DNA of 64,000 nucleotides. Origin: Streptacidiphilus anmyonensis (lineage in GTDB: Bacteria > Actinomycetota > Actinomycetes > Streptomycetales > Streptomycetaceae). Both the position numbers and the translations under genes were made by a program. Of the stretch, positions 19,711 through 22,587 are shown piece after piece. The stretch is from positions 273,349 to 337,348 of the forward strand of contig NZ_BBPQ01000002.1 of the NCBI RefSeq assembly GCF_000787855.1. Direction: 5' to 3'. How positions within the stretch are numbered: the first letter of the stretch is position 1; each line of letters starts with the position of its first letter. The notes below the pieces were generated by a model. It had not been told where the DNA came from. It did no database searches and saw only the letters and a list, made by a program, of their open reading frames with translations.

Positions 19711-20673
19711 ATGGCAACGGCGCCAACCCACTTGCAGATCACCCGACTCGGCGGTCGCATCGGTGCCCTCCTGCACGGCGTCAGGCTCGGCGGCGAGCTG
19801 TCCGGCCCGACCGTCGAGGCGATCCGGGCCGCGCTCCACACCCACAAGGTGATCTTCTTCAAGAACCAGCAGCACCTGGACGACGCGAGCCACGAGGACT
19901 TCGCCCGGCTGCTCGGTCAGCCGGTCGGCCACCCGACCGTGCCCGCCGCCGACGGGCGCTACGTGTTCGAGCTCGACGCGACCAAGGGCGTGCGGGCCAA
20001 CAACTGGCACACGGACGTCACCTTCGTCCCCGCCTACCCAGCCGCCTCCATCCTGCGGGCGATCGAGCTGCCGCCCTACGGCGGCGAGACCGTCTGGGCC
20101 AACACGGCCGCCGCCTACCGGTCGCTGCCGCCCGCACTGAAGGTCTTCGCCGAGCACCTGCGCGCCGTCCACACCAACGACTTCGACTACGCCGCCCGGC
20201 TCGGGCTGCGCCCGGAGCTCGCCGAGAATCGCGAGGTGGCCGAGCTGTTCCGGCAGGTGTTCGTCGCGACGGCGTTCAAGACCGAGCACCCGGTGGTGCG
20301 GGTCCACCCGGTGACCGGCGAGAAGACGATCCTGCTCGGCGCCTTCACGCAGAGCCTGGTCGGCTTCTCCAGCGACGACAGCCGGGAGCTGATCGCGCTG
20401 TTCCAGCGCTTCGTCGAGAAGCCCGAGCACACCGTCCGCTGGCGGTGGGAGGTCGGCGACGTCGCGATCTGGGACAACCGCGCCACCCAGCACTACGCCG
20501 TCAACGACTACGGCGACGAGCCGCGCCTGGTCCGCCGGATCACCCTCGACGGAGACGTCCCGGTCGGCGTCGACGGGCAGCCCAGCCGACTGCTGGAGCC
20601 CGCCGATCCGCCGCGCGTCGCCGGGATCGTGCCGGCCGCCGAGCTGGAGCAGCTAGCGCTCCCGCGCGCCTGA
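19711..20673 (+). CDS. TauD/TfdA-family Fe(II)/2-oxoglutarate dioxygenase
   Basis: 320 residues from ATG 19711 (GGAAGG upstream). The iron-binding facial triad is visible: His100 and Asp102 in NWHTDVTF and His261 in [11 protein letters not shown], followed by arginines (LVRRITLDG) that hold 2-oxoglutarate. The fold and length match taurine and alkylsulfate dioxygenases, which release sulfite or an aldehyde from sulfonates/sulfates; the true substrate is unknown. No sulfonate transporter adjoins it. It is divergent from a TetR-controlled exporter. Its 3' end overlaps the convergent terC gene by 21 bp. Confidence 0.9.
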
Positions 20674-21672
20674 CAGTTCCTGCTCGGCCTTCCCCTGCTC
20701 GTCCTCCTTCGCCTCGGTCGCACGCGCCGTCCGGCGCGAGGCGATCAGCGAGGTGACGGTCGTGACGGCCAGCACCCCGACCACGACGGCGAGCGAGAGC
20801 GGCGTGCCGATCTCCGGCGCGCCGTGGACGCCCGCCTCGTGGAGGGCGTGCAGCAGCAGCTTCACGCCGATGAAGCCGAGGATCACGGACAGACCGTAGG
20901 AGAGGTGCACCAGGCGGTCCAGCAGGCCGCCGATGAGGAAGTAGAGCTGGCGCAGGCCCATCAGCGCGAAGGCGTTGGCCGCGAACACGATGTAGGCGTC
21001 CTGCGTCAGCCCGAAGATGGCGGGGATCGAGTCCATCGCGAAGAGCACGTCCGTCGTGCCGATCGCCAGGATCACCAGCAGCATCGGGGTGATCAGCCGG
21101 CGGCCGCCCTCCACGACGGTGAACCGGGTGCCCCGGTAGCCGTCCGTGGTCGGGAAGCGGCGTTCGACGGCGCGGAGCAGCTTGCTCTCCTTGTACTCGT
21201 CGTCCTCCTTGCCTGACCGGGTCTCCTTGATCAGCTTCCAGGCGGTCCAGATCAGGAAGGCGCCGAAGAGGAAGAAGATCCACGAGAAGGAGGCGATGAC
21301 GGCCGCGCCCGCGGCGATGAAGACGGCCCGCAGCACCAGGGCTATCAGCACGCCGATCATCAGCACCCGCTGCTGGAGAACGCGCGGGACGGCGAACTTC
21401 GCCATGATCAGCACGAAGACGAAGAGGTTGTCGACACTGAGCGACTTCTCGGTGATCCACCCGGCCATGAACTGCCCGGCCGGGGCCGAGCCGGAGTGCC
21501 ACCACAGGAAGCCGGCGAAGAGCCCGGCGAGGGCGATCCACACCGCGGACCAAGTGGCCGCCTCGCGCAGTGAGACCTCGTGGGGTTTGCGCGCGCCGAC
21601 GAAGAAGTCGACGGCGATCAGGACGACGAGCACCACGATCGTGGTGACCCACATGGTCAGGGAAACGTCCAT
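20653..21672 (-). CDS. terC: TerC-family integral membrane protein
   Basis: 339 residues from ATG 21672, with GGAGGAG at a normal distance; an upstream in-frame ATG (21726) lies inside the regulatory leader. The protein has about eight membrane segments and the TerC signatures [13 protein letters not shown] and [13 protein letters not shown]-like [13 protein letters not shown], whose paired acidic residues line the presumed cation path. TerC proteins are linked to tellurite resistance and, in several bacteria, to manganese efflux, including loading of exported metalloenzymes. A candidate yybP-ykoY riboswitch precedes the gene, which supports the Mn role. It is the distal gene of the terD-GH16-terC unit. 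Confidence 0.93.
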
Positions 21673-21683
21673 GGACGGTTGCT

Positions 21684-21815
21684 CCTCCGGCAGAAGACAC
21701 GTGTGTCTGCCGGAGGTCTCCTCCACCCGCTCGTCACGAGCCGGGTCGACGCACCCGGACGGTCCGAGGACCGTCGTGATGACGGGAGCGCCGTTTCAGG
21801 GAGTACTCCCCTCCG
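21684..21815 (-). promoter_or_regulatory. Candidate yybP-ykoY (Mn2+) riboswitch controlling terC
   Basis: The leader of terC carries the two conserved boxes of the manganese riboswitch: GGGGAGTA (minus strand, 21811-21804) and GAGACC just before CCTCCGGCAGA (21716-21706). A six-base P1 helix can form between CGGAGG (21815-21810) and CCTCCG (21716-21711). The same CCTCCGGCAGA can instead pair perfectly for 11 bp with TCTGCCGGAGG (21694-21684), which contains the terC ribosome site. The two pairings exclude each other, giving a translational ON switch: metal-stabilised P1 frees the ribosome site. The 5' box lies inside the last codons of the GH16 gene. Confidence 0.75.
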
Positions 21816-22587
21816 CTGGCCCGTCCAGGGTAACAAACGGGTCGGCGGCCCTGTAGACGCGGAGGTAGTCGACCGCGAAGGTGATCGGCGTGCTGCCGCT
21901 CGGCGCCGGGTGGTACCGACCGGCGCAGACGGACAGGTTCAGGATCAGGTAGGCGGACCAGTCCACGCCGACGCCGGTGTCGTCCGAGAAGACCTTGACG
22001 CCGCCCACGTACCAGTCGACCGACTCCTCACCGTAGGTGGTGCCGACGGTGACCCAGCCGCCCGGCTTGATCAGGTTCGCGTCGGTGTAGTAGGTGCCAC
22101 CGCCGCCCACGTGGTTGCTCAGCTCCAGCAGGTTCGGGTTGTCCGGGTGGTACTCGAAGGAGTCGATCTCACCGTCGCCGTCCTTCCAGGTCCACAGCGC
22201 CGGCCAGGCGCCCTGACCGGTCGGCAGTTGCACCCGGGTCTCGATGTGGTCGCCGGTCGTGACCTGGAACCCCTCCTGGGAACCCTCGGTGGTGAGCAGG
22301 CCGGTGGTCCAGGCGCGCCGACCGTTCCGCAGGGTGTGCGAGCCGGGCCGAGCGGTGAAAGTGGCGACGCCGTCGGCGACGGAGACCGCGCTCGGGTCCA
22401 ACCAGTCGAGCTTGTTGTCGTTCGGGTTGTGGTTGCCGTACTCGTACGCCGAGGTGGTGTCACCGACCCAACGGCGGCCCCATGTCAGGGGACTGCTGAA
22501 CTCCTCCGCCCAGATCGGCGCGGGCGGGGTGGCGGGAGTGGACGACGGGGTGGGGCGAAGCGTCGACATGGGCGTGCTCACACTCAC
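21796..22587 (-). CDS. Glycoside hydrolase family 16-like protein without signal peptide
   Basis: 263 residues from GTG 22587, overlapping the terD TGA (GTGA). After a Pro/Thr-rich start it has the beta-jelly-roll of GH16: IWAEEFSSPLTWGRRWVG, then the catalytic box GEIDSFEYH carrying the nucleophile and acid/base glutamates (ExDxxE), and the closing VDYLRVYRA. Family members cleave beta-1,3 or mixed-linkage glucans and galactans and are normally secreted, yet no signal sequence or membrane segment is present here. Embedded between terD and terC it probably acts inside the cell or on a ter-linked polymer. Its last codons (EGSTP) overlap the riboswitch of terC. Confidence 0.88.
   Translation of the reverse strand: MSVSTPMSTLRPTPSSTPATPPAPIWAEEFSSPLTWGRRWVGDTTSAYEYGNHNPNDNKLDWLDPSAVSVADGVATFTARPGSHTLRNGRRAWTTGLLTTEGSQEGFQVTTGDHIETRVQLPTGQGAWPALWTWKDGDGEIDSFEYHPDNPNLLELSNHVGGGGTYYTDANLIKPGGWVTVGTTYGEESVDWYVGGVKVFSDDTGVGVDWSAYLILNLSVCAGRYHPAPSGSTPITFAVDYLRVYRAADPFVTLDGPAEGSTP

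What the first reader, a model, noticed from the sequence alone, without database searches (positions are those of the whole stretch)
21684..21815. Candidate manganese (yybP-ykoY) riboswitch inside an operon, with a readable translational switch
Read from sequence: conserved GGGGAGTA and GAGACC boxes, a 6-bp P1 (CGGAGG/CCTCCG) and a competing perfect 11-bp stem that hides the terC ribosome site. The two pairings share the same CCTCCG bases, so only one can form. Known: yybP-ykoY RNAs sense Mn2+ and often precede TerC-family genes. Unusual here: the first conserved box lies in the last codons of the upstream GH16 gene, so a coding sequence and an aptamer are superimposed.
Basis: partly seen in the sequence, partly recalled or inferred. 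Interest (0 to 1): 0.75.

Follow-up and report, generated by a model that had tools for sequence, protein, structure and literature searches.

The report
Manganese riboswitch controlling terC
A stretch of messenger RNA just before a metal-transport gene is very probably a manganese sensor of a well-known type that opens the gene's ribosome site when manganese is plentiful; the standard database model overlooks it here and in related genomes sampled, and also overlooks a well-studied E. coli example.

Summary
Window 21817-21684 (minus strand) is a yybP-ykoY-type (alx-type) Mn2+ riboswitch leader of a TerC/Alx-family gene. Rfam's RF00080 model gives no match. It also gives none (E <= 1) for the E. 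coli K-12 alx leader, a reported Mn2+ riboswitch, so that negative carries little weight.

A model built only from actinobacterial leaders finds E. coli alx (51.5 bits, E 3e-10). Both boxes stand before terC in 69 of 91 loci. The structure covaries, and P1, switch and ribosome-site strands change together. Loops L1 and L3 fit the solved Mn2+ site.

Two side claims fail. The overlap with the GH16-like gene is seen only here, through a lost stop codon. A conserved -10 box suggests the leader has its own promoter.

Beyond the finding: RF00080 passes its cut-off in 0 of 296 class genomes, R1 hits 186 (E <= 0.01). The genome has a second aptamer before a GDT1-family gene. Bulge L3 splits by gene: UCA-type in 48 of 48 terC rows, ACAYRCY in 23 of 23 GDT1 rows. 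Ligand and direction are inferred. A yybP element was already reported in Streptomyces coelicolor, as attenuation, so a purely translational switch is not certain.

The parts
21827..21835 (-). Extended -10-like element TGTTACCCT (-10 = TACCCT 21832-21827), inside the 3' end of the GH16-like ORF
   Evidence: TANNNT starting 19-24 nt before GGAGTA in 66 of 69 leaders, against at most 7 of 69 in 39 background windows between -290 and -57 (sequences). Promoter function is inferred from comparison; the sigma-70 consensus scan found no promoter here.
21810..21815 (-). P1 (P1.1) 5' strand CGGAGG
   Evidence: Pairs with 21716-21711; 100% of cells paired in A1, and 4 of 6 pairs change on both sides in A2
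21804..21809 (-). L1 5' strand GGAGUA (with P1, the GGGGAGUA box)
   Evidence: GGAGTA in 40 of 40 class-wide R1 hits read. In A1 it is invariant by selection, because the 69 rows were picked by this motif. Corresponds to the sarcin-ricin-like L1 loop of the solved structures (PMC6754395, passages).
21800..21803 (-). P1.2 5' strand CUCC (partner 21724-21721 GGAG)
   Evidence: First pair U-A 20, C-G 19, G-C 3 of 53 in A2, 11 unpaired
21747..21793 (-). P3 arm: P3.1 CGGCGC/GCGUCG and CCCG/CGGG, bulge L3, P3.2 GACGGUC-CUCG-GACCGUC
   Evidence: Same arm in the free minimum-energy fold and in the comparative structure
21776..21782 (-). L3 bulge UCAUCAC (7 nt); third residue A21780 corresponds to the Mn2+-contacting adenosine (A41 L. 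lactis / A48 X. oryzae)
   Evidence: UCANNAC in 69 of 69 rows of A1, which were not picked by L3; solved L3 sequences from PMC6754395
21725..21746 (-). P4 hairpin ACCCG-G-CUCG-UGA-CGAG-CGGGU
   Evidence: 5 of 5 modelled pairs change on both sides in A2, 97.4% of cells paired
21717..21724 (-). P1.2 3' strand GGAG (21724-21721) and L1 3' strand GAGA (21720-21717), first part of the GAGACC box
   Evidence: GAGACC in 36 of 40 class-wide R1 hits read; L162, L169, L180, L181 differ
21706..21716 (-). Switch strand CCUCCGGCAGA: first 6 nt form P1 with 21815-21810, all 11 nt form the anti-Shine-Dalgarno stem
   Evidence: Co-variation with both partners: 0 of 2000 permutations reach the observed mean for either pairing
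21684..21694 (-). Ribosome-site strand UCUGCCGGAGG (Shine-Dalgarno GGAGG 21688-21684)
   Evidence: Perfect 11-bp stem with the switch strand; matched changes in relatives
20653..21672 (-). terC/alx-family gene (339 aa, ATG at 21672)
   Evidence: Pfam TerC 175.1 bits; NCBIfam TIGR03718 R_switched_Alx 388.9 bits, cut-off 246.4
21796..22587 (-). Upstream GH16-like ORF; its last 7 codons (stop included) overlap the aptamer in this genome only among the loci searched, after loss of the stop that relatives have
   Evidence: (EglC 67 bits, cut-off 700)

Best explanation
The leader 21817-21684 (minus) is an alx-type yybP-ykoY Mn2+ riboswitch that controls, mainly at translation, a TerC/Alx-family membrane protein. 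Transcription starts from the leader's own promoter, just before P1. Without Mn2+ the strand 21716-21706 pairs with 21694-21684 and buries the ribosome site. When cytosolic Mn2+ is high, L1 (GGAGUA/GAGA) docks on bulge L3 (UCAUCAC), with Mn2+ held by phosphates and the third L3 residue. P1 then captures CCUCCG, the ribosome site is freed, and TerC is made. Shown by sequence: the anatomy, the exclusive pairings, their co-variation, the gene, and homology to the E. coli alx leader. Inferred: Mn2+ as ligand, ON direction, translational level, the transcription start, and docking geometry.
For: Conservation: 69 of 91 terC loci carry both boxes. Covariation: A1, 15 of 31 pairs change on both sides against 7.3 (sd 1.4) in shuffles, 0 of 500. 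A2, 25 of 31 pairs, 94.4% of cells paired against 74.6% in shuffles and at most 51.0% for slid partners (A2 is fitted to the model, so it leans towards it). Switch: over 36 distinct leaders the strict Watson-Crick stem with the ribosome-site region averages 7.03 against 4.93 permuted, with P1 4.86 against 3.88, 0 of 2000 each. L009, L012 and L013 differ from the rest in all three strands together, possibly one inherited event. Loops: L1 and L3 agree with solved aptamers. Homology: R2, built only from actinobacterial leaders, finds E. coli K-12 alx at 51.5 bits, E 3.3e-10, and RF00080-detectable leaders such as L100 (39.4 bits). Target: TIGR03718 'R_switched_Alx'. Specificity: of 40 R1 hits picked by hand across the class, 35 precede terC, 3 GDT1, 2 other genes. 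No terminator-like site in 20400-22000.
Against: RF00080 gives no match. In 12 of 81 close terC loci the aptamer boxes are absent. P1-forming folds cost about 10.5 kcal/mol over the ensemble without ligand, so Mn2+ docking or co-transcriptional folding must pay for it. In S. coelicolor a yybP element before SCO2347 (an integral membrane protein) is shown as an example of active riboswitching by attenuation (PMC4681348, figure-legend passage), which points to an effect on transcripts; whether SCO2347 is a terC orthologue was not tested. R2 does not hit E. coli mntP at E <= 5, nor L104, and hits L103 and L106 only weakly (E 0.31, 0.088). P2, part of the four-way junction of solved aptamers, is missing here. 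L1 invariance in A1 is by selection. No binding or expression data exist for this locus.
Confidence: 0.87

Rival explanations
1. The same Mn2+ riboswitch, but working mainly on transcripts: premature termination (for example Rho-dependent) or decay of the leader when the ribosome site is closed, rather than translation alone.
For: In S. coelicolor a yybP element before SCO2347 is presented as active riboswitching by attenuation, from RNA-seq (PMC4681348, passages).
Against: No terminator-like site in 20400-22000. The switch strand co-varies with the ribosome-site strand, which an attenuator would not need.
Confidence: 0.2
2. A structured leader of the same shape that senses something other than, or in addition to, Mn2+: alkaline pH as reported for E. 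coli alx, or Ca2+ as reported for a Streptococcus member.
For: The alx riboswitch is reported to respond to alkaline shock as well as Mn2+ (PMC9603457, passages). A streptococcal yybP-ykoY aptamer is said to bind Ca2+ more tightly than Mn2+, although Mn2+ activates it more (PMC9495176, passages). The element here is of the alx subtype.
Against: The third L3 residue, which contacts Mn2+ in solved structures, is A in 69 of 69 rows of A1. The second aptamer of the genome stands before a GDT1 cation/proton antiporter, a family linked to Mn2+ export (PMC13274385).
Confidence: 0.2
3. Only a conserved anti-Shine-Dalgarno hairpin (for example a thermosensor), with the boxes present for another reason.
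For: The 11-bp hairpin is part of the free fold at almost no cost (0.16 kcal/mol).
Against: The aptamer part covaries independently of the hairpin in P1.2, P3.1, P3.2 and P4. The P1 strand changes together with the switch strand.
Confidence: 0.04
4. The boxes are coding constraint of the GH16-like gene, so the aptamer resemblance is chance.
For: GGGGAGTA lies in the last codons of that ORF in the window.
Against: The same boxes occur before terC at loci where tblastn finds no GH16-like gene. Relatives that have the gene stop before the boxes.
Confidence: 0.01

Closest known systems
E. coli alx riboswitch (yybP-ykoY class, before a TerC-family gene)
   Same: Found by the actinobacterial model R2 over all 103 positions (51.5 bits). 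Same L1, same L3 subtype (UCAUUAC against UCAUCAC). The window's TerC belongs to TIGR03718 'R_switched_Alx'. alx responds to Mn2+ and alkaline shock (PMC9603457 passages).
   Different: Different phylum; much longer insertion in the arm before GAGACC; expression platform not compared here.
E. coli mntP and X. oryzae aptamers (yybP-ykoY, ACAUACU-type L3)
   Same: Same L1 box and a 7-nt L3 bulge with A as third residue. E. coli mntP is reported to switch translation on with Mn2+ (PMC9603457 passage).
   Different: L3 is ACAUACU instead of UCANNAC. R2 does not detect mntP at E <= 5; RF00080 does, at 41.6 bits, below its cut-off.
L. lactis yybP-ykoY aptamer (solved structure)
   Same: L3 UCAAUUC is of the same UCA type as the window's UCAUCAC (L3 sequence from PMC6754395 passage).
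   Different: Four-way junction; sequence not fetched or searched here.
Streptomyces coelicolor yybP element before SCO2347
   Same: A yybP-ykoY element reported in a streptomycete before an integral membrane protein gene (PMC4681348, passage; yybP-ykoY detection in Corynebacterium and Streptomyces RNA-seq is also stated in PMC8164766, passage).
   Different: Described as attenuation; sequence not compared, and identity of SCO2347 with terC or GDT1 not tested.
Corynebacterium glutamicum cg2157 (terC) yybP-ykoY leader
   Same: Actinobacterial terC leader listed as RF00080, 49.13 bits, with an observed RNA-seq leader (PMC3890552, table passage).
   Different: With the present RF00080 model C. 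glutamicum does not ring at E <= 0.01 (controls), only at E <= 10 (control).
Rfam RF03067 terC RNA
   Same: Also sits before an alx homologue (Rhizobium gallicum, 58.3 bits).
   Different: Different family; no match in 21600-21900 at E <= 10.

Membership tests
yybP-ykoY Mn2+ riboswitch class | L1 internal loop: GG-GGAGUA on one strand, GAGA-CC on the other, closing P1 | tested here: met
   Window 21811-21804 and 21720-21715. GGAGTA in 40 of 40 and GAGACC in 36 of 40 class-wide R1 hits; R1 was trained on rows picked by these motifs.
yybP-ykoY Mn2+ riboswitch class | 7-nt L3 bulge in the P3 arm with the Mn2+-contacting A at position 3 | tested here: met
   UCAUCAC 21782-21776; position 3 is A in all 53 rows of A2 and all 20 of A3 and in 69 of 69 of A1; free fold gives the same bulge
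yybP-ykoY Mn2+ riboswitch class | Legs P1/P1.2 and P3.1/P3.2 plus P4, supported by covariation | tested here: met
yybP-ykoY Mn2+ riboswitch class | P2 helix / four-way junction of solved aptamers | tested here: not met
   No P2 in the window; L014, L016 and L017 have an extra hairpin there. Not treated as defining, because a three-way junction is reported for a streptococcal member (PMC9495176 passage).
yybP-ykoY Mn2+ riboswitch class | Homology to a member reported to respond to Mn2+ | tested here: met
   R2 finds the E. coli alx leader at 51.5 bits, E 3.3e-10, out of sample; it does not find mntP at E <= 5
yybP-ykoY Mn2+ riboswitch class | Stands before a Mn2+/metal homeostasis gene | tested here: met
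   TerC, TIGR03718 R_switched_Alx 388.9 bits, cut-off 246.4
yybP-ykoY Mn2+ riboswitch class | Selective Mn2+ binding and gene activation | not testable with these tools
   Needs probing, ITC or a reporter
Rfam RF00080 (the model as an operational test) | Match at or above 45 bits | tested here: not met
   No match. E. coli alx (none at E <= 1) and mntP (41.6 bits) fail the same test, so the model is not a sufficient test of the class. The controls list E. coli as ringing and two unnamed control genomes as over the cut-off; which place rings was not shown, and could not check it.
Rfam RF03067 terC RNA | Match to the covariance model | tested here: not met
   None at E <= 10 in 21600-21900

The most novel reading that the evidence does not exclude
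Mn2+ riboswitches come in two sensor subtypes, distinguished by the L3 bulge around the Mn2+-contacting adenosine (UCANNAC and ACAYRCY), which are assigned by gene: the first to TerC/Alx proteins, the second to exporters (GDT1/MneA, MntP). Bacteria that carry one of each, such as the window's genome and E. coli, would run a two-setting manganese response with different Mn2+ thresholds or pH dependence. The UCANNAC subtype is largely invisible to the current Rfam model, so many actinobacterial Mn2+ riboswitches would go unannotated by it.
Probability: 0.35. Interest if true: 0.62.

Novelty: new member of a known kind. Interest (0 to 1): 0.4.

Why it matters
The locus itself is a new, clear member of a known riboswitch class. 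Its wider value is threefold. First, the current Rfam model passes its cut-off in 0 of 296 sampled class genomes, while the model built here hits 186 of 296 at E <= 0.01. Manganese control in streptomycetes and many other actinobacteria is therefore likely under-annotated by the present RF00080, although yybP elements in Corynebacterium and Streptomyces were reported earlier. Second, a single natural genome holds two aptamers with different L3 bulges before different Mn2+-linked genes, a ready-made pair for testing how RNA sets its metal threshold. Third, the matched changes of three strands (P1, switch, ribosome site) are evolutionary evidence for the proposed switch.

Tried and rejected
RF00080 as the deciding test was rejected, because it gives nothing for E. 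coli alx at E <= 1 and scores mntP under its cut-off (one search had already returned no gathering hit for the mntP leader). The weak cmscan matches at 21600-21900 (mir-187, Flavivirus_DB, SAH, Flavi_ISFV_xrRNA) were rejected as chance: all lie far below their gathering scores.

The GH16/aptamer superposition as a functional arrangement was rejected. L004-L008 carry the same gene with a stop before the aptamer, and the window has lost that stop. The single-hit tblastn alignments run across stop codons in some relatives, so the stop positions were read.

Transcription read-through from terD/GH16 as the only source of terC mRNA was judged unnecessary because of the conserved -10 box, but it is not excluded. 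The consensus promoter scan found nothing, so the promoter claim rests on comparison alone; the stretch -56 to -25, which holds other conserved T-rich motifs, was left out of the background. The MAFFT alignment A1 misplaces a column of P3.1/P3.2 between Streptacidiphilus and Streptomyces types; leaders were therefore re-aligned with a covariance model (A2).

Limits of the counts. The 69 rows of A1 were picked by exact GGAGTA and GAGACC, so L1 invariance there is circular; L3 was not used for picking. The 40 downstream genes were chosen by hand from the R1 list. The 30 GDT1 loci are the best-scoring ones. R1 missed at least two genomes that RF00080 hit at E <= 0.01 (G311, G508).

The cross-phylum check of the L3/gene rule is small: E. 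coli alx and mntP, and a Vitreoscilla plasmid GDT1 leader (ACACACU). A Rhizobium alx homologue has a different RNA, RF03067. That Rhizobium locus, a Rhodococcus GDT1 locus and a Pseudomonas ter operon gave no R2 match. L. lactis (UCAAUUC, PMC6754395) is of the UCA type; by recall its gene is a P-type ATPase, not terC, which would be an exception outside actinobacteria.

Literature: listings; passages only of PMC6754395, PMC3890552, PMC3766115, PMC9495176, PMC9603457, PMC13274385, PMC10550928, PMC8164766 and PMC4681348 (of PMC6754395 and PMC13274385 also the abstract). In these I saw no statement of the L3/gene split and none on Streptacidiphilus. Papers not held: (among them the two 2015 founding papers and a 2011 S. 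coelicolor RNA-seq paper that may list the element).

Full report
WHAT WAS CHECKED. The minus strand of 21500-22000 was read. GGGGAGTA is at 21811-21804 and GAGACC at 21720-21715. CGGAGG 21815-21810 can pair with CCTCCG 21716-21711, and 21716-21706 forms a perfect 11-bp stem with 21694-21684, which holds the GGAGG of a gene starting at ATG 21672. That gene encodes a TerC protein (Pfam TerC 175.1 bits; NCBIfam TIGR03718 'R_switched_Alx' 388.9 bits, cut-off 246.4). The leader folds better than shuffles (z -3.43, 1 of 200), and its minimum-energy fold already contains the P3 arm, P4 and the anti-ribosome-site stem. The nearest named relatives by TerC are Streptacidiphilus species (up to 91% identity); the window's genome itself is unnamed.

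RFAM IS NEGATIVE. No match to any family at gathering score in the window, and no RF00080 match at E <= 10 in 21600-21900. In the own genome RF00080 rings only weakly, at two other places (E 0.073 and 2.4).

RELATIVES. terC loci were collected from 61 genomes (60 with TerC, 30 loci kept) and from a genome-contig scan (67 loci). After removing six duplicates, 91 loci were inspected: 69, the window's own included, carry both boxes 60-160 nt apart before terC, 22 do not. Of those 22, 12 lie among the 81 close loci (L003-L089 less duplicates) and 10 among the distant ones. Three distant ones (L090, L092, L094; Conexibacter and Solirubrobacterales by record title) nevertheless match the models.

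STRUCTURE. The 69 aptamers were aligned (A1, 66 distinct). Because they were picked by exact GGAGTA and GAGACC, those bases are invariant by selection. RNAalifold alone predicts 22 pairs, 10 with double changes. A 31-pair structure gives 92.0% paired cells and 15 pairs with double changes, against 87.8% and 7.3 in shuffles, 0 of 500 for each measure. Model R1 was built from A1. It scores the window at 98.2 bits, E 1.3e-18; the next window hits are chance (E >= 1.6). A wider alignment A2 (53 leaders from many families) gives 94.4% paired cells and 25 of 31 pairs with double changes. The covariation score is 0.569 against 0.208 in shuffles and at most 0.131 for slid partners. A2 was fitted to the model and so leans towards it; the shuffles and slides are the controls.

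THE SWITCH. Across 36 distinct combinations the strand after GAGA pairs with the ribosome-site region by 7.03 bases on average (permuted 4.93) and with the P1 strand by 4.86 (permuted 3.88). No permutation of 2000 reached either value. L009, L012 and L013 carry the same change in all three strands (CGAAGG / CCTTCG / CGAAGG), possibly one event. L158, L161 and L166 use CGAGG / CCTCGAAC / TTCGAGG in the same way. Some loci fit poorly (L149, L174, L180). Without ligand the hairpin state is favoured: forcing P1 costs 10.5 kcal/mol, forcing the hairpin 0.16 (the energy model has no tertiary contacts). There is no terminator-like site in 20400-22000. The mechanism is therefore most likely translational, OFF without ligand and ON with it. 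Level, direction and ligand follow from anatomy and class, not from a measurement here. Against a purely translational reading, a yybP element before SCO2347 of S. coelicolor is shown as active riboswitching by attenuation (PMC4681348, figure-legend passage).

THE METAL SITE. In the solved aptamers Mn2+ is held between L1 and L3, by phosphates and N7 of an invariable adenosine, third residue of a 7-nt L3 (ACA48UACU in X. oryzae, UCA41AUUC in L. lactis); L1 is sarcin-ricin-like and its A10 contacts P3.1 (PMC6754395, passages read). The window has GGAGUA/GAGA and a 7-nt bulge UCAUCAC, which fits.

HOMOLOGY TO A REPORTED MEMBER. Model R2, built from A2, i.e. from actinobacterial leaders only, finds the E. 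coli K-12 alx leader at 51.5 bits, E 3.3e-10, over all model positions. It also finds RF00080-detected leaders L100, L101, L102, L105, L107, L108, L109 and L110 at E <= 3.4e-4 and L188-L191 at E <= 4.7e-10; L103 (E 0.31) and L106 (E 0.088) are weak, L104 and E. coli mntP are not found at E <= 5. RF00080 behaves the other way round in E. coli: mntP 41.6 bits (cut-off 45), no alx at E <= 1. Its control rings in E. coli at E <= 0.01 without showing where; I could not search the whole E. coli record. E. coli alx and mntP are described as Mn2+-responsive riboswitches in PMC9603457 (passages). The negative Rfam result is thus best read as a limit of the model.

DISTRIBUTION. In a draw of 296 class genomes R1 matches 186 at E <= 0.01. 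In a draw of the same size, with the same handles as far as listed, RF00080 matches 11 at E <= 0.01 and none over its cut-off; at least two of those 11 (G311, G508) were missed by R1. In a phylum sample RF00080 gave 10 of 246, one over the cut-off. In the family, R2 matches 46 of 61 genomes, 32 of them at two or more places. I took 40 of the R1 class hits, chosen by hand for diversity of families and for genomes with several hits, and read the gene downstream. 35 are TerC, 3 GDT1, 1 a PGPGW membrane protein, 1 a protein without a Pfam match. GGAGTA is present in 40 of these 40, GAGACC in 36.

SECOND APTAMER. The own genome holds two R2 matches at E <= 0.01: the window's, and C117:81601-81713 (L116 9714-9602). 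The second lies before a GDT1-family gene (Pfam PF01169, 124.3 bits) and overlaps the weak RF00080 match. Of the 30 best-scoring GDT1 loci from 79 class genomes, 19 have an R2 match.

L3 SPLIT. L3 is ACAYRCY in 23 of 23 GDT1-linked aptamers (20 rows of A3, L116 included, plus L148, L160, L182). Among 48 TerC-linked rows of A2 it is UCANNAC in 47 and UCAUCUC in one. In the 69 rows of A1, picked through TerC and the boxes but not through L3, it is UCANNAC in 69; 13 A2 rows, the window's included, come from these same loci. The two A2 rows with other genes (L149, L165) are UCANNAC. E. coli follows the same split: alx UCAUUAC and mntP ACAUACU. The rows are related by descent, so these are not independent counts.

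PROMOTER AND UPSTREAM GENE. 66 of 69 leaders have TANNNT starting 19-24 nt before GGAGTA; 39 background windows between -290 and -57 hold at most 7. In the window it is TGTTACCCT. The exceptions are L009, L012 and L013. In L004-L008 it stops before the aptamer (TAC or TAT, then CAC or CGC, then TGA), whereas the window reads TAC-AGG-GCC and has 18 sense codons after that TAC before TGA 21798-21796. The label GH16 is itself weak: EglC 67 bits against a cut-off of 700.

WHAT IS KNOWN. yybP-ykoY leaders before terC are known: C. glutamicum cg2157 was listed with RF00080 and an observed leader (PMC3890552, table passage). A yybP element is in print for S. coelicolor (PMC4681348; also mentioned for Corynebacterium and Streptomyces in PMC8164766). 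A survey counts the class as present in more than 75% of its taxonomic groups (PMC3766115, passages). TerC proteins are linked to Mn2+ efflux and to metalation of exported enzymes (PMC10550928, passages). The present element is therefore a new member of a known kind. What I did not see in the listings and passages named in Tried and rejected is the L3/gene split.

Noticed in passing
L116 9714-9602 (G000 C117:81601-81713), minus: Second Mn2+-riboswitch-like aptamer of the same genome, before a GDT1/UPF0016-family gene, with the other L3 type (ACAUACU).
   Followed up: yes
A1, A2 and A3 alignments; L192 (E. coli alx), L111 (E. coli mntP), L224 (Vitreoscilla): L3 bulge type follows the downstream gene: UCA-type with TerC/Alx, ACAYRCY with GDT1 and MntP.
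   Followed up: partly
L192 1374-1502 and Rfam RF00080: RF00080 of release 15 does not detect the E. coli alx leader at E <= 1 and scores mntP under its own cut-off.
   Followed up: partly
L019, L021, L026, L032, upstream of terC: terC loci without the aptamer boxes keep a similar promoter, with the start codon about 7 nt after the -10 box, so the mRNA may be leaderless: riboswitch loss coupled to leaderless translation.
   Followed up: no
L030 and L031, upstream of terC: Possible remnants: P1-like and ribosome-site strands are present while the aptamer core is missing.
   Followed up: no
Streptomyces terC promoters, for example L054, about 30-75 nt before GGAGTA: A recurring double motif (TTTGG...TTTACC, then TTTACC with the -10 box about 17 nt on) that may be an operator as well as the -35 region.
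   Followed up: no
L165 101-570: Aptamer of the UCA type before a small PGPGW membrane protein (PF09656) instead of terC.
   Followed up: partly
L149 101-1126: Strong R1 hit (86.1 bits) before a 283-aa protein with no Pfam match.
   Followed up: partly
L090, L092, L094: Conexibacter/Solirubrobacterales terC leaders with a divergent L1 (GGGAAGUA and AAACC instead of GGGGAGUA and GAGACC).
   Followed up: no
window 22587-21796: GH16-like ORF that has lost the stop found in relatives, so that it now crosses the terC promoter region and the first part of the aptamer.
   Followed up: yes
window 23141-22584: A TerD-domain gene lies upstream of the GH16-like ORF. A TerD homologue also lies upstream of terC in many relatives, 52-113 nt before the boxes in some loci and about 2 kb away in Streptomyces loci.
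   Followed up: no
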